A stretch of DNA of 64,000 bases from an uncultured Mordavella sp. GTDB taxonomy: Bacteria > Bacillota > Clostridia > Lachnospirales > Lachnospiraceae. Both the position numbers and the translations under genes were made by a program. Shown piece after piece: positions 2,741-58,655 of the stretch. Every line of letters begins with the position of its first letter. Positions within the stretch are counted from its first letter, which is position 1. The DNA lies in assembly GCA_902406105.1 (NCBI GenBank), contig CABPCP010000004.1, forward strand, positions 1 through 64,000, in the 5' to 3' direction. The notes under the pieces are model-generated. The model worked only from the letters and a program-made list of their open reading frames with translations, did not search any database and was not told the DNA's origin.

Positions 2741-2839
2741 CCTAAATTCCTCCATTTTCCCGTAAATTCATACTCACAAAATATTATAGAGCAGAAGCAT
2801 TTTTCTGGCAAGCCGTCATTTGGGTACAGGGCAAAACGC

Positions 2840-2882
2840 AATTTGGGACGTAGCCTTTTTGCATTTTACTACGTCCCAAATT
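2840..2882 (-). terminator. Terminator hairpin after the fumarase beta gene
   Basis: A 14-bp perfect inverted repeat (AATTTGGGACGTAG and its complement) with a 15-base loop, two bases after the fumarase beta stop codon. No long T-run follows on the minus strand, so it may equally stabilise the 3' end of the mRNA. It marks the end of the 13-gene succinate operon. Confidence 0.6.
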
Positions 2883-2884
2883 GA

Positions 2885-3439
2885 CTATTTCTCCGCCAGA
2901 TAGGCTTTTCTGCCTTCTTCGTACAGATTGTTTCCTTCGCTGTCGATGATGACTACCAGCGGCATGTCTTCTACATACAGCCTGCGCAGGGCTTCCGCTC
3001 CCAGGTCTTCATAGGCCCCCAGTTCTGCTTTCTTGATGCATTTGGCCAGCAGCGCTCCCGCGCCGCCAATAGCTCCAAAGTATACGCCGCTGTATTTTTT
3101 CATGGCTTCGACCACTTCTGGAAGGCGGGCGCCTTTGCCGATCATGCCTCTGGCTCCCACGGACATCATGGTAGGCGCGTAGGCGTCCATCCGGCCGCTG
3201 GTGGTGGGCCCGGCGCTTCCAATCACCTGTCCAGGTTTCGCCGGTGTTGGTCCTACATAGTAGATGGTGGCATCTGTTGGATCAAAGGGCAGTTCTTCTC
3301 CCTTTGCCAGCGCCTCGCACATCCGTTTATGCCCGGCATCTCTTGAGGTATAGATGGTCCCTGTAAGGAGTACCTGGTCTCCCGCGTGAAGGGTTTTGGC
3401 TAATTCTTCTGTAAGGGGTAAGGTAATCTTTCTTGCCAT
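2885..3439 (-). CDS. fumB: Fumarate hydratase class I, beta (C-terminal) subunit
   Basis: Beta subunit, 184 residues, of a two-subunit oxygen-sensitive [4Fe-4S] hydro-lyase (fumarase or L-tartrate dehydratase family). It supplies the Fumerase_C domain with the conserved SAGPTTSGRMD motif (residues 75-85) and the GARGMIGKG segment. It starts directly after the alpha subunit stop and is the last gene of the operon. Tartrate dehydratase is the alternative family member, but neighbouring malate dehydrogenase and fumarate reductase favour malate/fumarate interconversion. The symbol denotes the split class I beta subunit, not E. coli FumB. Confidence 0.9.
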   Translation of the reverse strand: MARKITLPLTEELAKTLHAGDQVLLTGTIYTSRDAGHKRMCEALAKGEELPFDPTDATIYYVGPTPAKPGQVIGSAGPTTSGRMDAYAPTMMSVGARGMIGKGARLPEVVEAMKKYSGVYFGAIGGAGALLAKCIKKAELGAYEDLGAEALRRLYVEDMPLVVIIDSEGNNLYEEGRKAYLAEK

Positions 3440-4282
3440 TTATATCACCTCCGATTTGTGGCGCGTCACATGACAGTTGATGTTGACCGCGCAGGGCATT
3501 CCCGCAATATGAGTGGGCAGCGTCTCTATGTTCAGACCGATCGCCGTGGTCTTTCCGCCAAATCCCTGCGGTCCGATCCCCAGTTCATTGATCTTCTCCA
3601 GCATTTCTTTCTCCAGATCTGCGTAAAACGGATCCGGATTGGAGGAGTCTAAGGGCCGCATCAGAGCTTTCTTGGCAAGCAGGGCGCATTTGTCAAAAGT
3701 GCCTCCGATCCCTACTCCTACCACCATGGGCGGACATGGGTTGGGACCTGCCGTCTCCACTACTTCCAGGATAAAATCTTTGATCCCCTGCAGACCGGCA
3801 GACGGTTTAAACATACGGATCTGGCTCATATTCTCACTTCCGAATCCTTTTGGTCCCACCGTCACTTTGATCTGTTCGCCGGGAACGATCTCTGTGTAAA
3901 GCATAGCCGGCGTGTTATCTCCTGTATTTCCCCGGCGGACCGGATCTCCTACTACAGATTTGCGCAGATAACCTTTGTCATATCCCCGGCGGACTCCTTC
4001 GTCTACCGCTTCTCTTAAATCTCCGCCTGTCAGGTGTACGTCCTGTCCGATTTCCAGAAATACACAGGCCATTCCTGTATCCTGGCAAATCGGAACATTT
4101 TCCGCATCCGCGATCTCATAGTTCTCGATAATGTTATCCAGAACTCCTTTGGCGATCTCACCGTCTTCTTGAGAACGGCAGTTCTGGATCGCGCATTTCA
4201 CATCTTCCGGAAGATGATTGTTGGCTTCGATACAGAGCCGCTCGATCACATCCGTCAGCGCGCTCACATTGATTTCACGCAT
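3440..4282 (-). CDS. fumA: Fumarate hydratase class I, alpha (N-terminal) subunit
   Basis: Alpha subunit, 280 residues, carrying the [4Fe-4S] cluster of a class I fumarase. Likely cluster ligands are C66 (PICQDTG), C183 (NPCPP) and C199 (FDKCA), matching the family spacing; GFGSENMSQIRM is also conserved. It is separated from the upstream carrier gene by a 170-bp repeat element but lies in the same orientation. Within the operon it would dehydrate malate, made by the first gene, to fumarate for the reductase. Activity is an inference from family and context. Confidence 0.9.
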   Translation of the reverse strand: MREINVSALTDVIERLCIEANNHLPEDVKCAIQNCRSQEDGEIAKGVLDNIIENYEIADAENVPICQDTGMACVFLEIGQDVHLTGGDLREAVDEGVRRGYDKGYLRKSVVGDPVRRGNTGDNTPAMLYTEIVPGEQIKVTVGPKGFGSENMSQIRMFKPSAGLQGIKDFILEVVETAGPNPCPPMVVGVGIGGTFDKCALLAKKALMRPLDSSNPDPFYADLEKEMLEKINELGIGPQGFGGKTTAIGLNIETLPTHIAGMPCAVNINCHVTRHKSEVI

Positions 4283-4358
4283 ATATATTCACTCCTTTCT
4301 TTTTCCTTTCACATCTTAATTATTCAGCACCTCATGGCATTCGCAAAGGCGCATACTC

Positions 4359-4528
4359 AACAGCTCAGATGCGCCTCCCTCCGCATTCGCAAAGTTGCGC
4401 CTTCCGGCGCTTCCGGCGGCTTTCGCCGCCCTTTGCTCATTCGTCCGGCGCTCACTCCATACATAGGACCGCTCGCATGATCATGCAAGCATGATCCTCG
4501 CTCACGCTCCATGTATGGCTGAACTGTT
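4359..4528 (-). repeat. 170-bp intergenic repeat element, copy 1
   Basis: Element bounded by imperfect inverted ends AACAGCTCAG and CTGAACTGTT. It contains internal hairpins such as GGCGGC-tttc-GCCGCC and a near-palindrome around CATGCTTGCATG. It shares ATGGAGTGAGCGCC, ATGAGCAAA, a GGCGG..AAGCCGC hairpin and both termini with the element at 16834-17041. It begins exactly at the stop codon of the carrier gene, whose TAA is partly formed by the element's end. It fills the whole carrier-fumarase gap. Confidence 0.75.
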
Positions 4529-5690
4529 ACAGGAATATCCCAATAAACTGGCAGGCTAATACTACGAATACCAGGGCCACGGGATATGTAGCCGCATAAG
4601 CGCTTGCCACATCGTCGGTCTCGGTCACCCGGATCAGGGTTCCCAGCGCCGGCGTACTGGTCATCCCGCCGCAGATAGATCCTAATGTGTTGAACAGACT
4701 TAGTCTCAATACTTTTGCCGCAAAGAAATACCCGATAAGCATTGGTATCAGTGTAATAAGCGCTCCATAGATAAACAGTACCAGTCCTTCTTCCCGCAGG
4801 ATCTCAACAAATCCGGCTCCGGCCTGTACGCCGGCTCCGATCAAAAACAAAGCCAGTCCAAATTCCCGAAGACATTCTAACACATGTTTTTCTACTTTCA
4901 TACTTAATTTTCCGACTTTCCCAAAATGCCCCAGGATCAGGCCCGCGATCAGCGGCCCGCCGGATGTGCCCAGAGAGAATTCCGCTCCGCCGGGAAGGGG
5001 GATCACAATATTCGCCAGAATGATCCCCAGCACAATGGCCAGCGCAAAGGGGAAAAATCCCATACTGTCCGCGTAAAACAATTCTTCCTTCTTTGTCTTA
5101 TGGAACTCTTCATCTCCCACATTCTGAGCCGCCTCAAACCTGGCCCGCTCCGCCGCCATATCTGTCTTCAAAAACTTGGGAACAAGCTGGACAAACAGCA
5201 CCACGCCCACCACGCCAAAGGGATAGGCAATGCCATATCCTACCGAAGCGTTTGACGACCCGGTGGCGTCAATGGCCGCCGCAAGCCCAGGCGTACTGGT
5301 CAGCGCTCCCGACATCATACCCACGCTGATGTCGGAGGGCACGCCGGCAAATTCTATAATAGCCACTGTAGTCAGCGCTCCCGCCGCAATAATGATAACT
5401 CCCAGCAAAATATAGGACTTTGCGTTCAGTTTAAAATTACGGAAAAACTTAGGTCCGGCGATAAATCCTACGCTCGTCACAAAACAGATCAATCCCAGCT
5501 CCCGCACCAGATCTGGTACTTCAAATCCAAAATGGCCAAATACCAGGGCTACCAGCAGGACGCCCGCCGTTCCCAGCTCTACGCCGCGGATCTTGATGCT
5601 TCCCGCCAGATACCCAATAAATGCCACCAGAAATACGATCATCAACGTATTTCCCAATATACTTTCCTGAAACCAGGTTATGATTCCCAC
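4527..5690 (-). CDS. AspT/YidE-family carrier, probable C4-dicarboxylate (succinate) exporter
   Basis: Membrane carrier of 387 residues with two Asp-Al_Ex repeats, each marked by a TSTP motif (GALTSTPGLAAA and GGMTSTPALGTL), about ten hydrophobic helices, and a hydrophilic loop around 185-215. It lacks the central TrkA_C domains of larger family members. Known relatives include the aspartate:alanine exchanger AspT and the succinate exporter SucE of corynebacteria. Its position between fumarate reductase and fumarase genes makes succinate, fumarate or aspartate the likely substrate, and succinate export the best inference. The stop codon abuts the 170-bp repeat. Confidence 0.82.
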   Translation of the reverse strand: MGIITWFQESILGNTLMIVFLVAFIGYLAGSIKIRGVELGTAGVLLVALVFGHFGFEVPDLVRELGLICFVTSVGFIAGPKFFRNFKLNAKSYILLGVIIIAAGALTTVAIIEFAGVPSDISVGMMSGALTSTPGLAAAIDATGSSNASVGYGIAYPFGVVGVVLFVQLVPKFLKTDMAAERARFEAAQNVGDEEFHKTKKEELFYADSMGFFPFALAIVLGIILANIVIPLPGGAEFSLGTSGGPLIAGLILGHFGKVGKLSMKVEKHVLECLREFGLALFLIGAGVQAGAGFVEILREEGLVLFIYGALITLIPMLIGYFFAAKVLRLSLFNTLGSICGGMTSTPALGTLIRVTETDDVASAYAATYPVALVFVVLACQFIGIFL

Positions 5691-5800
5691 TGCCTCATCC
5701 CTTCCCTTCTGTCTTCTTCCGCCCCGCGTATCCCAAGGGACCTTCGCAATCCCGCCGGATACGCTTTGTTGTCAGTCACGTTTTTGTTACTATTCACAGA

Positions 5801-7402
5801 TCATCTCTCATGTCTTGCGTAATGAGGAAGCAGAAGCGGAGAAACATCTCCTGTGTCCAGCCCGGCTGCCTTCAGTTCTTCCGCGTAAGTTTCAATATGA
5901 TCCAGGTTCATAGTTCCAAGCTGCACGTCTTTTGCTTTCGCCGCCGCTTTTTTCCCCGCGTTGCGGCCGAACACGATGATATCCAAAAGAGAGTTCCCCA
6001 TGAGACGGTTTCTTCCGTGGATTCCTCCCACCGCTTCTCCTGCTACCAGAAGATTATCGATGGTCTTGGTGAATCCATCTCCATTGATCTCCAGACCGCC
6101 ATTCTGGTAATGCAGCGTCGGATAGACCAGGATCGGAACTTTCCGCATATCAATATCATACCGCATATACATACGGAGCATAGCCGGGATCCGTTTCTCA
6201 ATGGTCCCCTCGCCGCCGATCATCTCGATCATAGGTGTATCCAGCCACACGCCGCTTCCGATCGGGGTTGTCACGCCTTTGCCTCTGGCCGTACATTCCC
6301 GGATAATAGAGGCGGATGACACATCGCGGGTCTCCAACGGATGCATGAAAGCTTCCCCATCCACATTTACCAGCATAGCTCCCAGAGAACGGACCTTCTC
6401 TGTTACCAGCGCGCCAAAGATCTGGGAGGGGAATGCCACTCCCGTAGGATGATACTGGATGGTATCCTGGTAGAGAAGGGGCACTCCTGCCCGGTATCCC
6501 AGGATCAGTCCGTCTGCCGTGGCTCCATAGTGGTTCGAGGTTGGGAAATTCTGATAGTGCATCCGGCCTGCGCCCCCTGTGGCGATCACCACGGTCTTGG
6601 CTCTTGCCACCAGATAATCATCGGTCTCCACATTCTGGAGCACCGCTCCGGCCACCTGTCCTTTCTCATCTTTCAACAGCTCCACTGCCGCTGTAAACTC
6701 CGCTACCGGAATCTTCCGGTTTAATACTTCATCCCGAAGAGTCCGCATGATCTCCGCCCCGGAATAATCTTTGCAGGCGTGCATCCGCTTCCTGGAAGTT
6801 CCTCCCCCGTGGATGGTGATCATCCTTCCGTCTTCGTCTTTATCAAACATAACGCCCAGATCATTCAGCCACTGGATCGCATCCGGCGCCTCCATCACCA
6901 GTTTGCGCAGCAATTCCGGCCTAGCCGCGAAATGTCCGCCGCCAAAGGCATCCAGGTAGTGCTGTACCGGCGAGTCGTTTTCCTTATCCGCCGCCTGGAT
7001 TCCGCCTTCCGCCATCATGGTGTTGGCATCCCCGATCCGCAGCTTGGTCACGATCATCACGTCCGCTCCGGCCTCATGGGCCTCGATGGCCGCGGAGGCT
7101 CCTGCTCCGCCTCCGCCGATCACCAATACGTCTACATCATAATCAATCTTGGTAAGATCTACCTGGTCTTTCAAAAGCCGGCTGTTGGAATGCAAGTAAT
7201 GCACCAGCTCTTCCGGCGCTTTCTGTCCTTTGTTGGGACCGATCTTGATCTCTTTAAATGCCTCCTGCCGGTAATCCGGATGGAATTCTTTCAGAAGGAC
7301 ATCCTTTTCCTCTGCCGTCATCCGCCTTGGCTCTGTCTTCATCCGTTCCGCTCTGGTAGCCTCGACTTTTTTCACAGATTCCATCATTTCTGGTGTAAAC
7401 AT
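5801..7402 (-). CDS. Soluble fumarate reductase flavoprotein subunit (FrdA/TfrA-like)
   Basis: FAD subunit of a fumarate reductase/succinate dehydrogenase, 533 residues. The dinucleotide fold starts late (VIGGGGAGAS, residues 94-103) behind an unusual N-terminal extension of about 88 residues. Catalytic elements match the family: QYHPTG (316-321), Arg in TARGKG (373), LHYQNGG (His 431) and HGRNRLMGNS (462-471). The His that binds FAD covalently in membrane FrdA/SdhA (SHT) is replaced by Asn127 in ANTMMAEGG, so FAD should be non-covalent. It is followed by no anchor subunit. It pairs with the next upstream iron-sulfur gene and is inferred to take electrons from HdrBC. Confidence 0.9.
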   Translation of the reverse strand: MFTPEMMESVKKVEATRAERMKTEPRRMTAEEKDVLLKEFHPDYRQEAFKEIKIGPNKGQKAPEELVHYLHSNSRLLKDQVDLTKIDYDVDVLVIGGGGAGASAAIEAHEAGADVMIVTKLRIGDANTMMAEGGIQAADKENDSPVQHYLDAFGGGHFAARPELLRKLVMEAPDAIQWLNDLGVMFDKDEDGRMITIHGGGTSRKRMHACKDYSGAEIMRTLRDEVLNRKIPVAEFTAAVELLKDEKGQVAGAVLQNVETDDYLVARAKTVVIATGGAGRMHYQNFPTSNHYGATADGLILGYRAGVPLLYQDTIQYHPTGVAFPSQIFGALVTEKVRSLGAMLVNVDGEAFMHPLETRDVSSASIIRECTARGKGVTTPIGSGVWLDTPMIEMIGGEGTIEKRIPAMLRMYMRYDIDMRKVPILVYPTLHYQNGGLEINGDGFTKTIDNLLVAGEAVGGIHGRNRLMGNSLLDIIVFGRNAGKKAAAKAKDVQLGTMNLDHIETYAEELKAAGLDTGDVSPLLLPHYARHER

Positions 7403-7413
7403 GGTCGTCCCTC

Positions 7414-8088
7414 CTATTTCTCAATCTCTCTTGTGTTATAAAGCTCCTGCATCTCTTCGATCGGCTTTTCCATGATCTGTTCGATCAGGCTGTCATAGGC
7501 TCCCTCGTGGATCTCCTCCACCCGCTTCTTGAGATGCTCCGCTTCCGGCGCGATGTATTTTCCTGTCAGTCTTCTTGCCAGAACGCCTACCATCGGATGG
7601 GAGATTCCCGCCGGACACCGGACGGAACAGCATCCGCAGCCGATACAGTCAAAGGATTCCTCCGCGCATTTCTCAAATTCCCCACGCTGGGCGTAAGCGA
7701 TATACTGCATCACATTCAGATCCTGCGGACAGGCTTTCGTACAGGCATTGCAGCCAATACAGCTGTAGATCTCCGGATACAGTTCCATCATCACCCGCTG
7801 CTCCGGGCGGATCTCATCGATCTCATAGGTCCGCTTGTCTGTAGGGAAATAAGGAATACTGGCCACGTACATGCCTTCCTCCACCTGGGTCTGGCAGGAC
7901 AGGCCGGTCTTCAGCTCATTCTTCCCCTTGATCCTATAGATCGTGGCACAGGCGCCGCAGAATCCGTGGCGGCATCCGCAGCCTCTCTTCAAGGTGTACC
8001 CGGCGTACTCCATCGCTGTCATGATGGTCAGGTCAGCGGGTACGGTGTATTTCTTTCCGAAAAAATATACATTTACCATCTTTTCCAT
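7414..8088 (-). CDS. Fumarate reductase iron-sulfur subunit (FrdB/TfrB-like)
   Basis: Iron-sulfur subunit of 224 residues. An N-terminal plant-type [2Fe-2S] domain has Cys 37, 39, 44, 47 and 65 (GCGCRHGFCGAC). Two four-Cys motifs follow, CIGCNACTKACP (110-121) and CIGCGCCSVRCP (148-159), suggesting two [4Fe-4S] clusters. Methanogen TfrB carries an additional HdrB-like CCG domain at its C-terminus; here that part is missing and a separate HdrB is encoded in the operon. The ATG at 8088 is preferred over 8133 because AGGAAAGG precedes it; a GGTGC-agc-GCACC hairpin sits just before that site. It would relay electrons to the flavoprotein. Confidence 0.9.
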   Translation of the reverse strand: MEKMVNVYFFGKKYTVPADLTIMTAMEYAGYTLKRGCGCRHGFCGACATIYRIKGKNELKTGLSCQTQVEEGMYVASIPYFPTDKRTYEIDEIRPEQRVMMELYPEIYSCIGCNACTKACPQDLNVMQYIAYAQRGEFEKCAEESFDCIGCGCCSVRCPAGISHPMVGVLARRLTGKYIAPEAEHLKKRVEEIHEGAYDSLIEQIMEKPIEEMQELYNTREIEK

Positions 8089-8107
8089 GAGTGTTTGTTC
8101 CTTTCCT

Positions 8108-8120
8108 GGTGCAGCGCACC
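8108..8120 (-). promoter_or_regulatory. Small hairpin directly upstream of the frdB ribosome site
   Basis: A perfect 5-bp stem with 3-base loop (GGTGC, loop, GCACC) ends one base before the AGGAAAGG ribosome site of the iron-sulfur subunit. It lies in the only sizeable untranslated gap (8089-8254) between flxA and frdB. The rest of that gap shows no ORF or clear promoter. The hairpin may protect a processed 5' end or tune translation; function is a guess. Confidence 0.3.
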
Positions 8121-8254
8121 AAACTTCTGTCACTTCTGTCCACCCAACCTCGATTCCGCTTACGCTCCGTCTCGGTTAAGTTTCACATGTCTATAAAGCT
8201 GGCCCATTTCCCTGGCAGCGCCATCTGAAGCCGCCCGGACACTGCGTTAGTACT

Positions 8255-9109
8255 TTAGTATTCATCCGGCATTTCATCTACTTCATCGCAGCGGAACACA
8301 GGGCCGTCTTTGCACACATATTTTGATCCGATGTTGCATCTTCCGCATTTCCCAACGCCGCACTTCATCCGCAGTTCCAGGGTGGTATACACCTGTTCTT
8401 TGGAAAATCCAAGTTCTTCCAGGCCCGCCAGCGTAAACTTGATCATGATCGGAGGACCGCACACCAAAGCCGTCTTATTCACGTCAAATCCAAGCTCTTT
8501 CACATAGTTGGGCACGAATCCCACATGGCCGTCCCATCCTTCTTCCTCCCGGTCAATAGTCAGGTAGACATTTACGCCTTCTTTTTTCATCCATACTTCC
8601 TGGATCTCTTTCAGCTGGACCAGATCCTCGGCGGAACGGGATCCGTAGACAATATCCACGCTGCCGTACTTCTCCCGGTTATCCAGCACATAATTGATCA
8701 CGGAACGCAGAGGCGCAAGTCCGATCCCTCCGGCGATAAACAGAAGATTCTTGCCTAACAGCTTATCTTCTACTGGAAAATGATTGCCGTAAGGTCCCCG
8801 GACTGTGATCTCGTCTCCCACTTCCAGACTGTGGAGATAGTCTGTCAGCATCCCGCATTTCTTGATGCTGAACTCCTGATACTCCTGGTTAGTCGGAGAA
8901 GATGTGATAGAAAACATGCCCTCGCTGATCCCAGGCGCGCATAACATGGCGCATTGGCCCGGCATATATTCAAATAATTTGCCTCCCTCCGGCGCGTTGA
9001 CCCGGAAAGTCTTCACATCCGGCGTTTCCTCCCGGATATCTGTAATGACCCCCACCTTGGGGATCAAGGTGTCTAACTCATAATTTTTATGACAGGTACA
9101 TTCACACAT
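8255..9109 (-). CDS. flxA: FlxA-like NAD(P)H:flavin oxidoreductase (FAD, [2Fe-2S])
   Basis: Electron-input subunit of the Flx complex, 284 residues. An FAD-binding ferredoxin-reductase domain is followed by an NAD-binding domain (FIAGGIGLAPLRSVI) and a C-terminal four-Cys [2Fe-2S] motif (CGVGKCGRCN plus a later C), as in dihydroorotate dehydrogenase electron-transfer subunits and AsrB. Established Flx proteins oxidise NADH and pass electrons to HdrA. An ORF from 9187 exists, but the ATG at 9109 has GAGGAGG just upstream and starts 5 bases after the previous stop. AsrB or hydrogenase gamma subunits are the nearest alternatives; flanking FlxD and HdrABC argue against them. Confidence 0.88.
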   Translation of the reverse strand: MCECTCHKNYELDTLIPKVGVITDIREETPDVKTFRVNAPEGGKLFEYMPGQCAMLCAPGISEGMFSITSSPTNQEYQEFSIKKCGMLTDYLHSLEVGDEITVRGPYGNHFPVEDKLLGKNLLFIAGGIGLAPLRSVINYVLDNREKYGSVDIVYGSRSAEDLVQLKEIQEVWMKKEGVNVYLTIDREEEGWDGHVGFVPNYVKELGFDVNKTALVCGPPIMIKFTLAGLEELGFSKEQVYTTLELRMKCGVGKCGRCNIGSKYVCKDGPVFRCDEVDEMPDEY

Positions 9110-9114
9110 GCCTC

Positions 9115-10161
9115 TTACGCCTCCTCTTCCTGAAATGCTTTCACAACCTTTACGATGTTCAAGGCTGCCGGACATTTCTCCACGCATCGGCCGCAGCCTA
9201 CGCAGGAGTACATCCCGTCATTATTGGCCGGGAAATACACCAGCTTGTGCATAAACCGCTGGCGGAACCGCTCTTTCTGAGTGGTCCGGTTATTTCCGTG
9301 AGCCATCATGGTAAAATCTGAATACATGCAGGAATCCCAGCAGCGGTATCTCTGCACGCCATGTCCGGTATCATAATCTTTGATGTCATAACACTGGCAG
9401 GTGGGGCAGACAAAGGTGCAGGTCCCGCAAGCCAGACAGGGTTTATACAGCTCTTCCCACAAAGGAGACTCAAATTTCTCCATCAGCACGTCCCCATTCC
9501 AGCCTTCCAGCGAAAGATGGGAATAAGGAAGTTTATCAATGATATTCCGGATCTTCTGCTGTTCTTCTTCCACCTGGGCTTTGGCTTTCGTTTCTTCCGC
9601 TCCTTCCAGCTTCTCCAGAAGATCCGCCGCCAGATCCGTCAGAGCCTCTCCCTTTTCCGTCTCCGGCTTCCAGTACAGGGTATCCCCGGTCATCCAGGTC
9701 ACCACATCTGCCGTGGGATCCGCCGCGTCAATGCCAAACACCTTGCAGAAGCAGGTCTCTTCCGGTTCCCGGCAGGCCATAGCTACGATCGTCCCATGGT
9801 CTCTCCTGGCCGCGTAAAAGGTATCGATGGGATCCGATAAAAATACCCGGTCCAGCACTTCTACTCCCTTGATATCGCAGGCTTTCATGCCAAACACCAC
9901 AAAATCCTGTTCTTTTAACGCCTCCGGCTCTACCGTGATCTTCTTTCCATTCCGGATACAGGTGTATAGGTTCTCACTCTGGGGAAAGAACACGTCTTTT
10001 GGGGACTTTACGCTTTTCAGCGTCTCCAGGTCCACCTGCCCTTCCTCGCTCCAAGGGCCGAAATTCACCTGTCCCGCGCTTTTTAACGGCAGGTACAATT
10101 CCTGGGCCGCGGCGATCTTCTGAAATAAGGAGGGTAAATTTTCTTTCTTGATCTTGTACAT
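9115..10161 (-). CDS. 4Fe-4S dicluster protein, FlxB/AsrA-like
   Basis: Iron-sulfur protein of 348 residues. The N-terminal two thirds resembles AsrA/hydrogenase beta-type subunits (KACDIKGVEVLDRVF, with MACREPEETCFC Cys pairs). The C-terminal third has CLACGTCTFVCPTCQC and CVGCGRCVEKCP motifs for two [4Fe-4S] clusters. It lies between FlxA and a second iron-sulfur protein, the position of FlxB/FlxC in flxABCD-hdrABC clusters, and is inferred to shuttle electrons between FlxA and HdrA. Which letter applies cannot be decided by eye, so no symbol is given. Confidence 0.85.
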   Translation of the reverse strand: MYKIKKENLPSLFQKIAAAQELYLPLKSAGQVNFGPWSEEGQVDLETLKSVKSPKDVFFPQSENLYTCIRNGKKITVEPEALKEQDFVVFGMKACDIKGVEVLDRVFLSDPIDTFYAARRDHGTIVAMACREPEETCFCKVFGIDAADPTADVVTWMTGDTLYWKPETEKGEALTDLAADLLEKLEGAEETKAKAQVEEEQQKIRNIIDKLPYSHLSLEGWNGDVLMEKFESPLWEELYKPCLACGTCTFVCPTCQCYDIKDYDTGHGVQRYRCWDSCMYSDFTMMAHGNNRTTQKERFRQRFMHKLVYFPANNDGMYSCVGCGRCVEKCPAALNIVKVVKAFQEEEA

Positions 10162-10164
10162 ACG

Positions 10165-11139
10165 CTATCTCCTTTCCGCCACGATTCCAGGCTCTGCATC
10201 GTCAAATTGGTAACTGGTCAGGGGGCCTTTTTCCTCAAGATCGGCGCCCGCCTGGTATTCTCCGTAGAGTTCATCGATATCTTTGATAAACTTCCGGTTA
10301 AACAAATGAAGGGGAATCCCCTGGGGACATACTCTGCTGCATTCTCCGCAGTCTGTACATCTTCCCGCCACATGGAAAGCCCGGATGATGTGGAACATCT
10401 TTTCCTCAAAAGAATCCACGTTGGCTTTCTGGGCGCTGTCAAATTTATTGCTGTCAAAGACACATTTGCGGCAGCTGCAGGCCGGGCAGACATTCCGGCA
10501 GGCGTTGCACCGGATACATTTGCTAAGCTCCTTCTGGAAGAAGGCGAATTTCTCTTCCGGGCTCATGGCCTCGATCTTCTCCACCTCCGCGAAACGGTCT
10601 CCGTCTGTAGTCTCTTTGGACTCTCCTATGATCTCATCATAGATCATATGGTCCTTGCCTTTACAGACGTGACACCGCTCCAGCATAGCCTCCTGATAGG
10701 TACAGGTCTTCTCCCCGTAAAGGGTCTGGATCGTCAGGTCTTTTGCCTCATCTTCAAGCTCTGCTCCCTGGATGTCCTGGATTCCTTTGATTCCCATCCC
10801 GCGGATCTTCTCAATGTCCAGTTTCCCTTTACAGCCCACACCGATGATATAGGCTTTCTCCCGGTCTACCCGGTGCTCCTTCATAAGCTGCTGGAAACTG
10901 TAAGTATCGCAAGGCTTTAAACACACCAGGGTCTTTCCCTCCAGCTTGGACGCCTCGATCATATATTTACTTAGATTCGCTCCGCAGAATCCATTGTATA
11001 CAAAATCCGCAAAGTCTTCTTCCTTCTCAAAATAAGCTGGTTCTGGATTATAAGGCAGGTCGCCGGCTTTCCATCCCAGCACTCTGGCCACTTGCCCGTC
11101 TGCCAGAAGTTCTTTCGCGCGGTTTATTAACTCCTGCAT
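10165..11139 (-). CDS. 4Fe-4S protein, FlxC-like
   Basis: Iron-sulfur protein of 324 residues. The N-terminal part (GFCGANLSKYM, LVCLKPCDTYSFQQLM, GVGCKGKLDIEKIRGMG) resembles FrhB/hydrogenase-beta type domains. It is followed by a CIRCNACRNVCPACSCRKC motif and a CTDCGECSRVCPQGIP motif, enough for two [4Fe-4S] clusters with extra Cys. It overlaps flxD by 13 bases and precedes the FlxB-like gene by 3 bases, so translation is tightly coupled. It is assigned to the Flx complex by content and position; letters B and C may be swapped. Confidence 0.85.
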   Translation of the reverse strand: MQELINRAKELLADGQVARVLGWKAGDLPYNPEPAYFEKEEDFADFVYNGFCGANLSKYMIEASKLEGKTLVCLKPCDTYSFQQLMKEHRVDREKAYIIGVGCKGKLDIEKIRGMGIKGIQDIQGAELEDEAKDLTIQTLYGEKTCTYQEAMLERCHVCKGKDHMIYDEIIGESKETTDGDRFAEVEKIEAMSPEEKFAFFQKELSKCIRCNACRNVCPACSCRKCVFDSNKFDSAQKANVDSFEEKMFHIIRAFHVAGRCTDCGECSRVCPQGIPLHLFNRKFIKDIDELYGEYQAGADLEEKGPLTSYQFDDAEPGIVAERR

Positions 11140-11570
11140 CTCAAATCCTCCAATCTTACGTTTTTCCCAAGAGACTGAATCTTCTCTACAAATTCATGCA
11201 TGGTCTGGGAGAATTTCACTCCTTCCGCCGCAGATACCCACTCCACGCGAGTCCGTCCGCTTTCCACGCCGATATAATCCAGCATGGAGAACAACAGCGT
11301 CATCCTTCTCCTTGCGTAATAGTTTCCGGAGGTATAGTGACAGTCTCCCGGATGACACCCGCAGATGATCACTCCATCCGCTCCCCGCTCAAAAGCCCTT
11401 AAGATAAACATGGGATTCACACGGCAGGAACAGGGAACCCGGATGATCTTCACATCGGCGGAATAAGACAGACGGCTGCTTCCTGCTAAGTCCGCGCCTG
11501 CGTAACTGCACCAGTTGCAGCAGAACGCCACGATCTTCGGTCTAAATTCTTCTTTTGCTTCTATCGACAT
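11127..11570 (-). CDS. flxD: FlxD/MvhD-like electron-transfer protein
   Basis: MvhD/FlxD family protein of 147 residues, the link between an electron-donor module and HdrA. It shows the family cysteine pattern CCNWCSY (C17, C18, C21), CSC (C47, C49) and CGCHPGDC (C70, C72, C77), which binds a [2Fe-2S] cluster in MvhD. It overlaps hdrA by 10 bases and the following gene by 13. With flxA and two dicluster proteins it completes a Flx set; no hydrogenase large subunit is present, so NADH rather than H2 is the likely donor. Confidence 0.92.
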   Translation of the reverse strand: MSIEAKEEFRPKIVAFCCNWCSYAGADLAGSSRLSYSADVKIIRVPCSCRVNPMFILRAFERGADGVIICGCHPGDCHYTSGNYYARRRMTLLFSMLDYIGVESGRTRVEWVSAAEGVKFSQTMHEFVEKIQSLGKNVRLEDLRCRS

Positions 11571-13549
11571 ATCGCATCCACCTCCGCTAGAATCTGTCTA
11601 TTTGAGAATCCCTGCAGGTCCATAGCGCCAGACGGACAGGTAACGGTACAAGCGCCGCAGCCCTGGCAGAGCGCGTCGTTGACCACCGCCAGTCTCCTTA
11701 CCTCCCGGATTCCATGATCGTTCACCTCTTTTTCTTCGTAGGTGATGGCTCCATAGGGGCATACATTCGCGCACTGGGAACAGCCGTTGCACAGCAATTC
11801 ATCGGAATGTGCCGTACATGGGTTGGTCAAAAGCTTATCTTTGGCCAGAAGCCCGATGGCTTTCACCGCCGCCGCTCCTGCCTGGGATACCGTCTCAGGA
11901 ATGTCCTTTGGCCCCTGGCATACGCCGGAAAGGAAAACACCCGCTGTGGGAGATTCCACCGGACGGAGTTTTGCGTGGGCTTCCGTCAGGAAATTATTGG
12001 TATCAATACTTGCCGTCAGCATGGTAGCGATCTTCCGTACGTCTGGATTTGGCTCAATGGCCGCCGCCAGCACTACCATATCTGCTTCTTTTAGGATCTG
12101 TTTATTATCCAGCAGGTCCGCTCCCTGTACCAAGAGTTTCCCATCCGGCTGCGGAATGACTTTTCCCACCTGGCCTTTGATATAATCTACCCCGTATTCT
12201 TCCACTGCCCGGCGATAGAACTCATCAAAGTTCTTGCCTGGGGTCCGCACATCAATGTAGAATACGGTCACATGGACATCCGGGTATTTGTCCCGGATCA
12301 GCATAGCGTGCTTTGCCGTATACATACAGCAGATCTTAGAGCAGTAGCTCTTTCCTCTGTGGTCCGCGCACCGGCTTCCTACGCACTGGACAAATACGAT
12401 CTCCTTGGGTGCCTTTCCATCGGAAAGCCGCTCCAGATGGCCTCCTGTTGGGCCCGCCGCGTTCATGATCCGCTCCAGCTCCAGGGATGTGATCACGTCT
12501 TTGCTCTGGCTGTAAGCGTACTCGTCATAATCATCCAGCTTGATCATATCGAATCCGGTGGCCACTACAATAGCGCCGTACTTCTCTGTAATGATCTCGT
12601 CTTCCTGTTCATAGTCGATAGCGCCGGCCTGGCACACCTTGGAGCAGACGCCGCATTTCCCCGTCTTAAATTTGATGCAGGCCTCCCGGTCGATCACCGG
12701 GACATTGGGAATGGCCTGGGCAAACGGCGTATAAATGGCGCTGCGGTTGTTCAGGCCCCGGTTAAACTCGCTGGGCGTCTTTTTGCTTGGACATTTCTCC
12801 TGGCATACCCCGCATCCGGTACACTTGGACATATCCACACTTCTCGCCTTCTTGCGGATATCCACCGTGAAATCTCCCACAAATCCGGATACTTTCTCTA
12901 CTTCGCTGTATGTATAGATATTGATATTGGGATGTGCGTTTGCCTCTACCATCTTCGGCGTCAGGATACAGGCGGAACAGTCCAGGGTGGGGAAGGTCTT
13001 GTCAAGCTGGGACATCCTTCCTCCGATGCTGGGGGTTTTCTCCACAATATCTACCGGATATCCCGCATCCGCAATGTCCAAAGCAGTCTGGATCCCCGCG
13101 ATCCCGCCTCCGATCACCAGAGCCCGTTTGGTCACCCGGCTCTCCCCTGGTTTCAGCGGAGTGTTTAAGTTTACTTTCGCTACCGCCGCCCGCATAAGGA
13201 TCACCGCTTTTTCCGTAGCCTCTTCCATATCCTTGTGGATCCAGGAACAGTGCTCCCGGATATTGGCGATCTCTACCATATAGGGATTTAACCCTGCTCT
13301 TTCCGCCGCGTTCCGGAAGGTGGTCTCGTGCATCCTGGGAGAACAGGAACAAACTACGATGCCGCTTAAGTTCTTCTCCTGGATCGCCTCCCGGATCTTC
13401 TCCTGACCGGCCTCTGAACACATATATTGATAATCCTCCGCATGAACCACGCCCGGCTCATGGAGGGCCATTTCTACTACTTTCTTTACGTCTACCGTTG
13501 CCGCGATATTGGTACCGCAATGACAGACGAATACTCCGATCCTAAGCAC
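11561..13549 (-). CDS. hdrA: Heterodisulfide reductase subunit A-like bifurcating flavoprotein
   Basis: HdrA family, 662 residues, expected site of flavin-based electron bifurcation. Order: N-terminal HdrA segment with Cys-rich FVCHCG and CSCSPRMHE; FAD-binding GGGIAGIQ (147-154); inserted ferredoxin domain (CTGCGVCQEKCP from 243, and CGVCSKVCQAGAI); FAD/thioredoxin-reductase-like core with CVGSRC and YCSKICC; C-terminal ferredoxin domain with CNGCSQCANVCP (from 587) and CQGCGACTVTCP (from 628). Length matches full HdrA. In known complexes it splits electrons from FlxD/MvhD between HdrB and ferredoxin. The high-potential acceptor here is inferred to be fumarate, through HdrBC and FrdAB. Confidence 0.94.
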   Translation of the reverse strand: MLRIGVFVCHCGTNIAATVDVKKVVEMALHEPGVVHAEDYQYMCSEAGQEKIREAIQEKNLSGIVVCSCSPRMHETTFRNAAERAGLNPYMVEIANIREHCSWIHKDMEEATEKAVILMRAAVAKVNLNTPLKPGESRVTKRALVIGGGIAGIQTALDIADAGYPVDIVEKTPSIGGRMSQLDKTFPTLDCSACILTPKMVEANAHPNINIYTYSEVEKVSGFVGDFTVDIRKKARSVDMSKCTGCGVCQEKCPSKKTPSEFNRGLNNRSAIYTPFAQAIPNVPVIDREACIKFKTGKCGVCSKVCQAGAIDYEQEDEIITEKYGAIVVATGFDMIKLDDYDEYAYSQSKDVITSLELERIMNAAGPTGGHLERLSDGKAPKEIVFVQCVGSRCADHRGKSYCSKICCMYTAKHAMLIRDKYPDVHVTVFYIDVRTPGKNFDEFYRRAVEEYGVDYIKGQVGKVIPQPDGKLLVQGADLLDNKQILKEADMVVLAAAIEPNPDVRKIATMLTASIDTNNFLTEAHAKLRPVESPTAGVFLSGVCQGPKDIPETVSQAGAAAVKAIGLLAKDKLLTNPCTAHSDELLCNGCSQCANVCPYGAITYEEKEVNDHGIREVRRLAVVNDALCQGCGACTVTCPSGAMDLQGFSNRQILAEVDAICR

Positions 13550-13555
13550 CTTCTA

Positions 13556-13945
13556 TCACCTCCTGTATCTTCTGAACGCGCTGACTAAGAGCTGCTGCGG
13601 GGTTTCCGGATCTAACAGTTCCGGGATTTCATCCGGGGTCAGGTAGTCCCCGCCTTTTTCCCGTTCTACGATCTGTCTTGCCGCATCGATCAGCTTGCCC
13701 GGTTTTACATCCCTGGGACACCGCTGCACGCAGGCAAAGCAGGAAAGACATTTCCACAAAGACCTAGACTGCACCAGTGACTCGATATCTTCATTGATCA
13801 CATAAGAAACAAACTGATGAGGCTTGATATCCATCTCGTTATAGGACGGACAGGTAGCGGAGCATTTGCCGCATTTCATACATTTCAGCGGATTCACGCC
13901 GCTGATCTCCTGGATCAGTTCTGCTTGTTTTTTCTGGTCTTTCAC
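13556..13945 (-). CDS. hdrC: Heterodisulfide reductase subunit C-like ferredoxin
   Basis: HdrC family, 129 residues, with two [4Fe-4S] motifs: CMKCGKCSATCPSYNEMD and CLSCFACVQRCPRDV. In HdrABC it wires HdrA to HdrB. The start codon overlaps the HdrB stop as ATGA, and the stop lies 6 bases before hdrA, so the three genes are translationally coupled. The order hdrB-hdrC-hdrA is collinear with the flx genes. Confidence 0.93.
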   Translation of the reverse strand: MKDQKKQAELIQEISGVNPLKCMKCGKCSATCPSYNEMDIKPHQFVSYVINEDIESLVQSRSLWKCLSCFACVQRCPRDVKPGKLIDAARQIVEREKGGDYLTPDEIPELLDPETPQQLLVSAFRRYRR

Positions 13946-14745
13946 TGCTTTTTCACCTCGTCTTTCACTCCCAGGGCCTCTGCCAGAAGTTCTGTAAAAT
14001 AATAAACCGGCAGATCCTCTTCCAGATTTTTATTCAGATTATACATACAGAGAGGACAGGCGGTGATCAGCATATCCGCGCCGAATCCTTCCGCGCTGTC
14101 CCCAATCTTTCTGCACATCTCTTTTGCCATATCTTTTTCTTTCAGCGATATGTAACCGCCGCAGCACTCATTCCTGTATGGATAGATTACCGGCTCTGCT
14201 CCGATCGCCCGTATAAAATCTTCCATGATCTTAGGATTCTCCGGATCGTCAAATGCCAGGATCTTTCCCGGTCTCAAAAGCAGACATCCGTAATAAGCGC
14301 CGATCTTCTTTCCTTCCAGTGGATGCACCACCTTTTCTTTCAGAACGTCAAATCCAATCTCGTCCCGGAGCACCTCCAGGAAATGCAGGACTTTCGTCTC
14401 ACCCTGATAGGGTTCTGCCAGTTCTCCCGCCATATAGTTGTTGGCCTTGGTGCGGATCTCTTCTACGTTGCGCATATCATCGTTGACTCTCTTGATCACA
14501 TGATGACAGGCGGAACATAAAGTGACCAGATCCTGGCCTTTTTCTTTCGCGTCGTTTAGTGCCCGGACGGAAGCAAGCTTCGTTGCGATCTCATCTGTCC
14601 CCAGGGGATACACGCCGCCGCAGCACTGCCATTCCTTGATCTCCTCCAGCTCAAATCCCAGAGCCTGGGCGGAAGCTCTGGCATAAGAATCCAGAGCCTC
14701 CGCTTTATTTTTCAAGGTACAGCCGGGATAATAACTGTATCTCAT
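13942..14745 (-). CDS. hdrB: Heterodisulfide reductase subunit B-like CCG-domain protein
   Basis: HdrB family, 267 residues, with both complete CCG domains: C9, C41-C42, C77 and C80, then C154, C194-C195, C230 and C233. In methanogens these bind two non-cubane [4Fe-4S] clusters that reduce CoM-S-S-CoB. Gut Clostridia do not make that heterodisulfide, so another acceptor is needed. The separate TfrAB-like pair in the operon is the obvious candidate, because methanogen TfrB carries an HdrB-like domain fused to its iron-sulfur part. This makes hdrB plus frdB a split version of that arrangement (inference). Confidence 0.93.
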   Translation of the reverse strand: MRYSYYPGCTLKNKAEALDSYARASAQALGFELEEIKEWQCCGGVYPLGTDEIATKLASVRALNDAKEKGQDLVTLCSACHHVIKRVNDDMRNVEEIRTKANNYMAGELAEPYQGETKVLHFLEVLRDEIGFDVLKEKVVHPLEGKKIGAYYGCLLLRPGKILAFDDPENPKIMEDFIRAIGAEPVIYPYRNECCGGYISLKEKDMAKEMCRKIGDSAEGFGADMLITACPLCMYNLNKNLEEDLPVYYFTELLAEALGVKDEVKKQ

Positions 14746-14769
14746 ATTGGTTCCTCCTTATCCCTCTTC

Positions 14770-15714
14770 TTAGATCTCAATCTGAGCGATCACATCTTTT
14801 AATACATTTGCGCTGTTCCGAAGCTTTTCCACCTCTTCGTCCGTCAGCCGCACCGGTATCCTGCCCTGTACTCCTTTAGGCCCTACCAGAGTCAATGTAC
14901 TTAAGGCCACATCTTCAATCCCGTATTCTCCGTGCATCATACTGGAAACGGTAGCTACAGAATCCGAAGCGGCGAGCACAAGATTACAAAGCTCACAGAC
15001 CGCTACTGAAACAGCATAGAACGTTGCTCCCTTTTTAGCGATCACCTGTCCGCCAGACTTATGCACATATTCTTCCATAGCGTCTTTATCCAATTTTTCT
15101 ATGCCTACCTTGTCGGCCATCGCCTCATAGTACGCATCCAGATTCATACTGGCAATGTCCGCGCTGGACCACGGAACAAAAGAAGAATCCCCATGTTCCC
15201 CATACACATACGCATGGATATTCTTCTGAGCCACATGAAAATGTTCAGACAGGCCATAACGCAGCCTGGCCGTATCCAAAACAGTTCCAGAACCAATGAT
15301 CTGGTTCTCTGGGAGACCCGAAATCTTGGTAAACACATAGGTCAGAATATCTACGGGGTTGCTGACAATAATATAGATCGCGTTAGGCGCCGCTTTCACG
15401 ATCTGAGGCGTGATCTGTTTGATGATATTCACATTAGTCTGGGTAAGCTCGATCCTGGTCTGTCCAGGTTTCCTCGCAATACCAGATGTGATGATCACAA
15501 TATCAGATCCGACCGCGTCTTCATATTCTCCCGCAATGATAGATACCGGATTACGGAAGCAGGTCCCCTGCTTGATGTCCATGACCTCACCCTCGACCTT
15601 GTCCTTATTAATGTCGATCAGGACGATCTCAGATGCGATATCTTCCCCTGACAGCTTATAAGCTATCGTAGCTCCAACACTTCCTGCGCCAATAATCGTA
15701 ATCTTGCTGCTCAT
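14770..15714 (-). CDS. mdh: Malate dehydrogenase of the LDH/MDH family
   Basis: NAD-dependent 2-hydroxyacid dehydrogenase of the lactate/malate superfamily, 314 residues. Features are GAGSVGATIAYKL (9-21), acidic D34 for NAD, the catalytic pair D147/R150 (LDTAR) and H174 (GEHGDSS). The substrate-specificity loop reads ARKPGQTR. R81 occupies the position called 102 in LDH, which is Gln in lactate and Arg in malate dehydrogenases, so oxaloacetate/malate is favoured. Automatic tools often call such proteins lactate dehydrogenase. It is first in the operon, 25 bases before hdrB, and its promoter carries a Rex-like site. Confidence 0.87.
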   Translation of the reverse strand: MSSKITIIGAGSVGATIAYKLSGEDIASEIVLIDINKDKVEGEVMDIKQGTCFRNPVSIIAGEYEDAVGSDIVIITSGIARKPGQTRIELTQTNVNIIKQITPQIVKAAPNAIYIIVSNPVDILTYVFTKISGLPENQIIGSGTVLDTARLRYGLSEHFHVAQKNIHAYVYGEHGDSSFVPWSSADIASMNLDAYYEAMADKVGIEKLDKDAMEEYVHKSGGQVIAKKGATFYAVSVAVCELCNLVLAASDSVATVSSMMHGEYGIEDVALSTLTLVGPKGVQGRIPVRLTDEEVEKLRNSANVLKDVIAQIEI

Positions 15715-15760
15715 AGTTCACCTATTCCTTTCTTCTGTTAAATTTTTCACTATACTAGGA

Positions 15761-15789
15761 ATGATATCATATCGTTAATTATTTGACAA
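15761..15789 (-). promoter_or_regulatory. Promoter of the mdh-hdr-flx-frd-fum operon with Rex-like operator
   Basis: On the minus strand a -35 TTGTCA (15784-15789) and -10 TATCAT (15761-15766) are separated by 17 bases. The 18-mer at 15772-15789 reads TTGTCAAATAATTAACGA. It matches the clostridial Rex site TTGTTAA-N4-TTAACAA at 12 of 14 defined positions and covers the -35 box. Rex releases DNA at high NADH/NAD, so the operon would be induced when NADH accumulates. A second perfect palindrome, ATGATATCAT, covers 15761-15770. The rex gene is not in this window. Confidence 0.65.
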
Positions 15790-50353: not shown

Positions 50354-50465
50354 AATATGTCCTTTATAAAGAATACTCCAGCAAGAAAGGAATGTCAATT
50401 CCCTGATTTCTTAAATTGTTCACAATTTTTCTTTCTATATTTTGTCTATTATTGACAAACTATTA

Positions 50466-58513: not shown

Positions 58514-58655
58514 TGAAGAAACATTCCGCCCTTCTTTACCCCCTCCCGTATTTTACCATTTGTACTCTTAAGCTTGTCAATGATTTATCAAACAAAATCC
58601 TGACCAATTTTTCTTCTGTGTTTTTGTATAGAATTGACAAACGCTATATATCTAT

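What the first reader, a model, noticed from the sequence alone, without database searches (positions are those of the whole stretch)
2885..15789. Flx-Hdr electron-bifurcating module built into a soluble fumarate reductase / succinate operon
Thirteen collinear genes encode Mdh, HdrB, HdrC, HdrA, FlxD, two FlxB/C-type proteins, FlxA, FrdB, FrdA, an AspT/SucE-type carrier and both fumarase subunits. Every step from oxaloacetate to exported succinate is present. FlxABCD-HdrABC is known to oxidise NADH with bifurcation to ferredoxin and a disulfide-type acceptor. Here the only acceptor enzyme in the operon is a TfrAB-like fumarate reductase that lacks the HdrB-like domain found fused in methanogen TfrB, while a free HdrB is encoded. 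The simplest model is a cytosolic complex: two NADH plus fumarate plus oxidised ferredoxin give succinate plus reduced ferredoxin, so that succinate formation would conserve energy without a membrane anchor. I do not know of a characterised example.
Basis: partly seen in the sequence, partly recalled or inferred. Interest (0 to 1): 0.92.

Follow-up and report, generated by a model that had tools for sequence, protein, structure and literature searches.

The report
Electron-bifurcating fumarate reductase operon
A gut bacterium carries a 13-gene operon that appears to make succinate with a soluble enzyme complex that would save energy as reduced ferredoxin; the idea was already proposed for one thermophile, but comparison shows the same core in many gut bacteria, including spirochaetes, and in part of them ties it to an NADH-sensing switch.

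Summary
Thirteen collinear genes run from mdh to fumB on the minus strand (15714-2885), behind one promoter and ahead of a strong hairpin. The core hdrBCA-flxDCBA-frdBA is not a local accident: all nine genes stand in this order in 58 of 59 of the kept genome-collection loci with enough flank (the 59th contig ends after frdB; the kept loci are the best matches) and in 8 of 8 Treponema loci examined. Around the fixed core the fumarate source is swapped (class I FumAB, class II FumC, in a separate lineage aspartase), and carriers differ. In the nearest complete genome the only HdrB-type protein, FlxD and FrdA found are those of this operon. A Rex-like (NADH/NAD+ sensor) operator lies on the -35 box here and recurs upstream of 24 of 33 mdh-hdrB operons (104 permuted control motifs: at most 3 of 33), but in only 7 of 46 other loci. 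Best reading: NADH enters at FlxA and bifurcates at HdrA to ferredoxin and, through HdrC-HdrB-FrdB, to fumarate on FrdA. Bifurcation and direct HdrB-FrdB transfer remain inferred. The idea was published for Pseudoclostridium thermosuccinogenes, so this is a new member of a proposed kind.

The parts
15772..15789 (-). Rex-like operator TTGTCAAATAATTAACGA, 2 mismatches to the recalled consensus TTGTTAANNNNTTAACAA
15761..15789 (-). promoter-like TTGTCA-17-TATCAT, overlapping the Rex-like site
14770..15714 (-). mdh: LDH-like malate dehydrogenase with Arg at the specificity position
13942..14745 (-). hdrB: two complete CCG motifs (ten Cys conserved in 96 of 96 aligned rows)
13556..13945 (-). hdrC: two [4Fe-4S] motifs, eight Cys conserved in 96 of 96 rows
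11561..13549 (-). hdrA: full-length match to methanogen HdrA of solved structure (5odc_A, E 9e-209)
11127..11570 (-). flxD: MvhD/FlpD homologue (5odc_D, E 3e-49)
10165..11139 (-). flxC: FdhB-like adaptor; closest solved folds are the FdhB-type subunits of Hdr complexes
9115..10161 (-). flxB: sulfhydrogenase-beta-type iron-sulfur protein
8255..9109 (-). flxA: FAD/NAD(P)-binding reductase with a C-terminal DHODB-type Fe-S domain (ATG 9109; the open frame reaches 9187)
7414..8088 (-). frdB: [2Fe-2S] plus two four-Cys [4Fe-4S] motifs, no HdrB-like domain (ATG 8088; the open frame reaches 8133)
5801..7402 (-). frdA: FAD fumarate reductase subunit, catalytic His/Arg conserved, Asn at the covalent-FAD His site
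4527..5690 (-). AspT/YidE-type carrier, probable dicarboxylate exporter
3440..4282 (-). fumA: class I fumarase alpha subunit
2885..3439 (-). fumB: class I fumarase beta subunit
2839..2883 (-). 16-bp hairpin right after fumB, probable end of the transcription unit
   Evidence: z = -6.1, 0 of 200 shuffles as stable

Best explanation
The operon encodes a soluble, flavin-based electron-bifurcating NADH:fumarate/ferredoxin oxidoreductase plus the enzymes that feed and drain it. NADH is oxidised at FlxA; electrons pass FlxB and the FdhB-like adaptor FlxC to FlxD and the FAD of HdrA. There each pair splits: one electron goes through the HdrA ferredoxin domains to ferredoxin, the other through HdrC and the two non-cubane clusters of HdrB to FrdB and on to fumarate at FrdA. 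Net: 2 NADH + fumarate + 2 oxidised ferredoxin -> 2 NAD+ + succinate + 2 reduced ferredoxin (one-electron units). Rnf can then turn the reduced ferredoxin into an ion gradient. Mdh and FumAB make the fumarate, the AspT-type carrier probably exports succinate, and Rex represses the unit until NADH/NAD+ rises. Shown here: genes, cofactor ligands, conserved order, swaps of the flanking enzymes, Rex-like sites, Rnf and Rex genes in relatives. Inferred: a single complex, the HdrB-FrdB contact, bifurcation, NADH rather than NADPH, the carrier's substrate, and binding of Rex.
For: Nine-gene core in identical order in 58 of 59 loci with at least 8 kb upstream and flxA directly before frdB in 73 of 73 with at least 1.2 kb (these come from the 80 best of 517 relatives, so biased to close ones); 8 of 8 Treponema loci, seven of them picked for long contigs, with an FrdB match in 52 of 98 genomes of that genus. 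Of 134 fetched loci, 80 hold all nine genes: 42 carry fumAB, 26 a FumC-family gene, none both, 12 neither, 4 of these at contig ends. Two of the 26 (L044, L046) are aspartases by best family score; FumC was checked by family search in three others. Dcu-type carriers follow flxA in L044, L047 and L052; the protein after flxA in L046 gave no family. In G001 the only CCG protein, FlpD and FrdA found are the operon's. HdrA, HdrB and FlxD match solved methanogen Hdr complexes; the FlxC model's two best PDB matches are 8rvu_E and 7bkb_E, the FdhB-type subunits of Hdr complexes. The HdrB, HdrC and FrdB cluster cysteines are invariant. Rnf above cut-off in 14 of 16 genomes. Rex-like sites in 24 of 33 mdh-hdrB operons; Rex domain in 7 of 9 same-order genomes; a rex-like gene in the fetched stretch of 11 of 81 loci. 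Standard free energy about -33 to -48 kJ/mol (potentials recalled). In P. thermosuccinogenes the like-composed operon rises about 4-fold under CO2 limitation (not significant for all subunits), and H2 nearly abolishes succinate, which its authors read as fitting ferredoxin coupling (PMC7282089).
Against: No activity, complex or ferredoxin dependence has been shown. FrdAB of this family occurs without Hdr genes in the fetched stretch in 17 of 39 genomes, and four genomes gave no FlxD at all, so it can take electrons elsewhere. HdrB keeps both disulfide-type clusters, which a mere wire would not need. G399, a genus mate, has a second CCG protein. The FrdB model was poor (mean pLDDT 63.5), so the interface could not be tested. 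G001 shows no ATP-type PEP carboxykinase, so its oxaloacetate source is unknown. Outside the mdh-hdrB type only 7 of 46 loci have a Rex-like site. In the same P. thermosuccinogenes paper a lowered culture redox potential had the opposite effect to H2, which its authors call confusing. A 2026 study of Blautia luti models succinate formation with a plain NADH-dependent fumarate reductase (PMC12773636).
Confidence: 0.66

Rival explanations
1. Uncoupled wire: Flx-Hdr and FrdAB form one NADH:fumarate reductase, but HdrA passes both electrons to fumarate and no ferredoxin is reduced.
For: The drop from NADH to fumarate is large (about -68 kJ/mol), so coupling is not needed. The latest B. luti model assumes a NADH-dependent enzyme (PMC12773636).
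Against: HdrA keeps the whole architecture of the bifurcating methanogen protein, including the C-terminal ferredoxin domains (full-length match to 5odc_A). A plain NADH:fumarate wire would hardly need seven extra subunits kept in order across phyla (inference).
Confidence: 0.17
2. Thiol shuttle: Flx-Hdr reduces a small disulfide or a thiol protein, and the thiol then reduces fumarate at FrdAB, as CoM/CoB thiols do in methanogens.
For: Both HdrB clusters are intact in 96 of 96 rows; FrdA's best NCBIfam match is TfrA. G399 has a second CCG protein.
Against: FrdB has no CCG domain, and in G001 and G400 no second CCG protein was found that could oxidise thiols for FrdAB. None of the 13 operon genes looks like a carrier thiol protein.
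Confidence: 0.08
3. Co-transcribed but separate: Flx-Hdr serves another acceptor, FrdAB draws electrons from a different donor, and the genes are neighbours only because both re-oxidise NADH.
For: FrdAB exists without nearby Hdr genes elsewhere, and no FlxD was found in G381, G297, G072 and G068.
Against: Order kept in 58 of 59 loci; Flx-linked FrdA falls in three places of the FrdA tree with three gene orders (55 chosen rows of 130); no other acceptor enzyme in the operon and no other HdrB or FlxD found in G001.
Confidence: 0.09

Closest known systems
'Succinate operon' of Pseudoclostridium thermosuccinogenes (PMC7282089, passages read; preprint Koendjbiharie and van Kranenburg 2019, seen only as a reference there)
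   Same: A fumarate hydratase, an Flx-Hdr stretch (seven genes if its locus tags step by five), two fumarate reductase genes and a possible succinate transporter; ferredoxin-coupled fumarate reduction proposed.
   Different: Here an mdh leads the operon, the carrier is of AspT type and the fumarase genes stand last; Rex control is proposed here. I did not compare the sequences.
FlxABCD-HdrABC of Desulfovibrio vulgaris (Ramos 2015, seen as a reference; content otherwise recalled)
   Same: Same seven-gene NADH dehydrogenase/Hdr module.
   Different: There linked to ethanol metabolism and a thiol acceptor; here joined by synteny to frdBA.
Methanogen thiol:fumarate reductase TfrAB
   Same: TfrA is the best NCBIfam match of FrdA; the TfrB model matches FrdB in its N-terminal and HdrB in its C-terminal part, a precedent for the HdrB-FrdB contact.
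   Different: FrdB lacks the HdrB-like part; HdrB is separate and comes with HdrC, HdrA and Flx.
MetFV-HdrABC-MvhD of Moorella (PMC5861303, passages read)
   Same: An Hdr module joined to a soluble substrate reductase, NADH as donor, bifurcation proposed.
   Different: Substrate is methylene-tetrahydrofolate; no FlxABC set (recalled) and no fumarate chemistry.
8-methylmenaquinol:fumarate reductase (SdhABE)
   Same: An HdrB-like subunit goes with SdhAB; SdhE and methanogen HdrB models score equally on this HdrB.
   Different: Membrane-associated and quinol-fed (recalled); here HdrBCA and Flx supply electrons and the operon has no such anchor.

Membership tests
FlxABCD-HdrABC | all seven subunits encoded together | tested here: met
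FlxABCD-HdrABC | HdrA and FlxD homologous to a bifurcating Hdr complex of solved structure | tested here: met
FlxABCD-HdrABC | NADH oxidation coupled to ferredoxin and a second acceptor | not testable with these tools
   needs enzyme assays
Proposed bifurcating fumarate reductase (P. thermosuccinogenes type) | Flx-Hdr genes contiguous with frdBA and a fumarase | tested here: met
   published order
Proposed bifurcating fumarate reductase (P. thermosuccinogenes type) | sequence relationship to the CDQ83 proteins | not tested
   the named genome was not retrieved
Thiol:fumarate reductase TfrAB | HdrB-like CCG domain fused in TfrB | tested here: not met
   no PF02754 match in FrdB
Complex II (SQR/QFR) | covalent-FAD histidine in the flavoprotein | tested here: not met
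   Asn in 131 of 131 rows; position recalled
Complex II (SQR/QFR) | [3Fe-4S] centre in the iron-sulfur subunit | tested here: not met
   two four-Cys motifs in 135 of 135 rows
Complex II (SQR/QFR) | membrane anchor subunits | tested here: inconclusive
   none among the 13 operon genes; genome-wide not searched
Fumarate reductase (chemistry) | catalytic Arg and His of the SdhA/FrdA family | tested here: met
   H318 and R338 in 131 of 131, H431 and R466 in 130 of 131 rows; roles recalled
Rex regulon | Rex operator at the promoter | tested here: met
   consensus recalled; rarer outside the mdh-hdrB type
Rex regulon | Rex binds the operator and responds to NADH | not testable with these tools
   needs a binding assay

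The most novel reading that the evidence does not exclude
The nine-gene core is a portable, soluble counterpart of fumarate respiration. It was assembled with frdBA at least twice in different gene orders, passed from Clostridia to Treponema, plugged into whatever fumarate source is at hand (FumAB, FumC or aspartase) and whatever C4 carrier, and in the Lachnospiraceae-type operons placed under the NADH sensor Rex. It makes succinate formation by a large part of the gut Clostridia an ion-gradient-forming process through ferredoxin and Rnf, worth about 0.56 ATP per succinate, which the one recent gut model that I read does not count.
Probability: 0.55. Interest if true: 0.8.

Novelty: new member of a known kind. 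Interest (0 to 1): 0.64.

Why it matters
Succinate is a product and signal in the gut. If its formation in such bacteria reduces ferredoxin, their energy budget, H2 output and redox balance differ from the published picture: at 2 ions per 2 electrons and 3.6 ions per ATP (the values used in PMC12773636), each succinate would add about 0.56 ATP. Named carriers in the genome collection include Blautia glucerasea (L096) and Blautia schinkii (L116), so the enzyme can be sought in cultured species and used to test how an Hdr module is wired to a substrate reductase. The Rex-like sites give a simple, direct prediction about its control.

Tried and rejected
Own-genome search: not held; the nearest genome G001 was used as a stand-in, so statements on 'the only HdrB' hold for G001 and G400 as searched, not for the window's own strain; G399 of the same genus has a further CCG protein.

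The 'Mdh is really an LDH' idea, raised by the NCBIfam cut-offs, was set aside on the specificity residue, although one chain named LDH (1y6j) shares that Arg.

Structure of FrdB: mean pLDDT 63.5, pTM 0.41; its PDB matches (best two TM-scores 0.26 and 0.22 by query length) were treated as uninformative. FlxC: mean pLDDT 66.8; about the first 180 residues are confident, the cluster region 204-279 is not.

Rex sites: one search took mdh or hdrB as the first gene and gave 73 loci, 28 with at most 2 mismatches (24 of 33 with mdh before hdrB, 4 of 40 others). Because fumC often stands before hdrB, the others were rescanned at the first recognised gene: 7 of 46, two more being cut (for L044, L046, L047 and L052, where frdB leads, that stretch is still not the operon start). 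Treponema loci show no convincing site. The 33 loci are related, so sites are not independent events, and the rest of the loci used for the density is mostly coding.

Repeats in the operon gave nothing of note. Two further Rex-like sites in the window were not followed far. Weak partial hdrC matches (26-28% identity) in L075-L077 were not counted as HdrC. Passages of PMC7325909, PMC10579422 and PMC12578642 held nothing on such an operon.
Full report
What is in the window. The minus strand carries thirteen genes in one run: mdh, hdrB, hdrC, hdrA, flxD, flxC, flxB, flxA, frdB, frdA, an AspT/YidE-type carrier, fumA and fumB. Junctions overlap or are short up to flxA; gaps of 166, 110 and 244 nt precede frdB, the carrier and fumA. 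A promoter-like TTGTCA-17-TATCAT lies at 15789-15761 and a 16-bp hairpin follows fumB directly (z = -6.1, 0 of 200 shuffles as stable). Family searches confirm the names. Starts of frdB and flxA are better placed at ATG 8088 and ATG 9109. The mdh product scores as a lactate dehydrogenase, but carries Arg where the aligned LDHs 4m1q and 1lld have Gln, in 51 of 51 rows; by the recalled residue rule it is a malate dehydrogenase. A third aligned chain named LDH, 1y6j, also has Arg.

Cofactor ligands. HdrB keeps ten cysteines in 96 of 96 rows, that is both CCG motifs; HdrC keeps eight in 96 of 96 and FrdB keeps one [2Fe-2S] and two four-Cys motifs in 135 of 135 (rows include loci of other architectures). 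FrdB has no CCG domain. FrdA has the catalytic His and Arg of the family (131 of 131, or 130 of 131 for H431 and R466) and Asn instead of the covalent-FAD His in 131 of 131 rows (the role of the positions is recalled). Non-covalent FAD fits an enzyme that works towards succinate (inference). HdrA matches the methanogen HdrA along nearly its whole length (5odc_A, E 9e-209), FlxD matches MvhD (5odc_D) and HdrB matches Hdr subunit B. The FlxC model, confident in about its first 180 residues, has as its two best matches in the PDB the FdhB-type subunits of Hdr complexes, 8rvu_E and 7bkb_E. So the Flx side resembles the donor side of solved Hdr complexes, with FlxB and FlxA bringing in a pyridine nucleotide.

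How widely it is kept. In these, 59 have at least 8 kb upstream; 58 hold all nine core genes in the window's order and the 59th contig (L128) ends after frdB; flxA stands directly before frdB in 73 of 73 with enough flank. The outer genes vary: mdh directly upstream in 30 of the 58, carrier downstream in 39 of 60 and fumA in 40 of 60 with 6 kb downstream. Among relatives of G001 the FrdB is patchy, 9 of 61 genomes. One of the 80 loci is from a Treponema metagenome genome. In its genus 52 of 98 genomes have an FrdB match, some only at contig ends, and 8 of 8 loci examined have the nine genes in order, so contamination is unlikely. In trees of FrdA and HdrA (55 and 38 chosen rows) the Treponema rows sit inside the Clostridia, next to Ruminococcus-like and other clostridial rows, which suggests transfer of the unit.

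What changes around the core. Of 134 fetched loci, 80 have all nine genes: 42 with class I fumAB, 26 with a FumC-family gene, none with both, 12 with neither (4 at contig ends). FumC was confirmed by family search in three (L153, L159, L173). In a separate FrdA lineage (L044, L046, L047, L052) the order is frdBA-hdrBCA-flxDCBA; L044 and L046 have an aspartase before frdB, L047 and L052 show no fumarase or aspartase match, and Dcu-type C4-dicarboxylate carriers follow in L044, L047 and L052 while L046's next gene gave no family. A third order, hdrCBA-flxDCBA-frdBA, occurs in L071. Different ways to supply fumarate and to move C4 acids around one fixed core say that fumarate is the substrate. 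Three positions in the tree with three gene orders fit repeated assembly, though loss from a common ancestor is not excluded.

What speaks against a strict link. In an even sample of the phylum, 39 of 398 genomes have this FrdB type at E up to 1e-20. In one search, 6 of 39 have the nine-gene set; 11 have hdr genes with further HdrA-like proteins, flxD and a distant flxC but no flxA or flxB (two of these stretches, L058 and L069, appear cut before hdrBC); 5 have only hdrC and hdrB beside frdBA; and 17 show no Hdr gene in the fetched stretch (some contigs short). Of the 22 genomes of the last two groups, all searched for FlpD, four gave none (G381, G297, G072, G068). So FrdAB is a module that can be fed in several ways, and Flx-Hdr is one of them.

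The only partners in the cell. In the complete nearest genome G001 the searches found one CCG protein, one FlpD and one FrdA, all from this operon; the same holds for G400, while G399 has a second CCG protein. That leaves HdrB no other known acceptor enzyme and FrdAB no thiol-oxidising CCG partner in G001, which argues for direct transfer from HdrB to FrdB. TfrB, whose family model matches FrdB at one end and HdrB at the other, is the precedent. Rnf is above its cut-off in 14 of 16 genomes searched. ATP-type PEP carboxykinase was found in G399 and G400 but not in G001.

A redox switch. The promoter's -35 box overlaps TTGTCAAATAATTAACGA, two mismatches from the recalled Rex consensus. Of 33 loci with mdh directly before hdrB, 24 have such a site within 300 nt upstream: 2.93 sites per kb there, 0.0096 per kb in the (mostly coding) rest of the same loci. 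Of 104 permuted half-site palindromes none exceeds 3 of 33. In the other loci, scanned before the first recognised gene, it is 7 of 46. So the Rex link is a trait of the mdh-hdrB type, not of the core as such. Rex's DNA-binding domain is found in 7 of 9 genomes of the order; the two without it, G407 and G445 (the latter 77% complete), have no good site, but neither has G441, which does have Rex. In 11 of 81 loci a rex-like gene lies in the fetched stretch, 8 at 77-100% and 3 at 28-31% identity to the L153 gene, which itself passes the Rex family cut-off; in the Ruminococcus type the order is icd-rex-fumC-hdrB. A library search for Rex with fumarate and heterodisulfide reductase listed no such report.

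Mechanism and energetics. With recalled potentials the coupled reaction is downhill by about 48 kJ/mol at -420 mV and 33 at -500 mV for ferredoxin, and by about 17 with NADH at -280 mV and ferredoxin at -500 mV. Bifurcation is therefore feasible, not proven.

Prior work. PMC7282089 (passages read) describes the 'succinate operon' of Pseudoclostridium thermosuccinogenes with fumarate hydratase, an Flx-Hdr complex, fumarate reductase and a possible transporter, and assumes ferredoxin-linked fumarate reduction, citing a 2019 preprint that I could not read. PMC12773636 (abstract and outline, passages, and sections 15 and 18 read) measured fumarate reductase with reduced viologen in Blautia luti, found frdAB highly transcribed, and modelled a NADH-dependent enzyme; words beginning with hdr or flx do not occur in its main text. 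I did not check the B. luti genome. No biochemical proof of the bifurcating enzyme turned up in ten searches of an open-licence library that lacks most subscription papers.

Verdict. I did not see in print the spread through gut Clostridia and Treponema or the Rex link; no search was aimed at the swaps around the core, and the unread preprint may hold some of this.

Noticed in passing
L053 and L063 (G381, G072): frdBA of this family stands right after a 1144-aa protein whose start reads like pyruvate carboxylase (no family search made), in genomes where no FlpD was found; its electron donor there is unknown.
   Followed up: partly
L051:11922-16391 (minus); L061:4729-7905 (plus): Very large HdrA-like proteins (1489 and 1058 aa) with pyridine-nucleotide and Fer4 domains beside hdrABC and frdBA: possibly another NAD(P)H input to the same fumarate reductase.
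   Followed up: partly
L048:10958-11890 (minus): An FMN-binding, Fer4-containing protein between fumAB and frdBA, followed downstream by genes that look like sucCD; a further possible electron input to FrdAB.
   Followed up: partly
G301, G365, G045, G253, G277, G040 and others: Many FlpD/MvhD genes contain one in-frame TGA, which may be selenocysteine.
   Followed up: no
window 50408-50425 and 58574-58591: Two more Rex-like sites with two mismatches, about 0.1 kb upstream of an unassigned 244-aa gene and of a gene with a weak match to a transcriptional activator.
   Followed up: partly
window 4283-4526: The gap between the carrier and fumA is unusually long and holds a palindromic stretch; function unknown.
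   Followed up: no
window 14770-15714 and its homologues: Automatic annotation by NCBIfam cut-offs would call this probable malate dehydrogenase a lactate dehydrogenase, a likely source of misannotation in these genomes.
   Followed up: yes
G001: No ATP-type PEP carboxykinase match, although two genus mates have it; the route to oxaloacetate in this strain is open.
   Followed up: no
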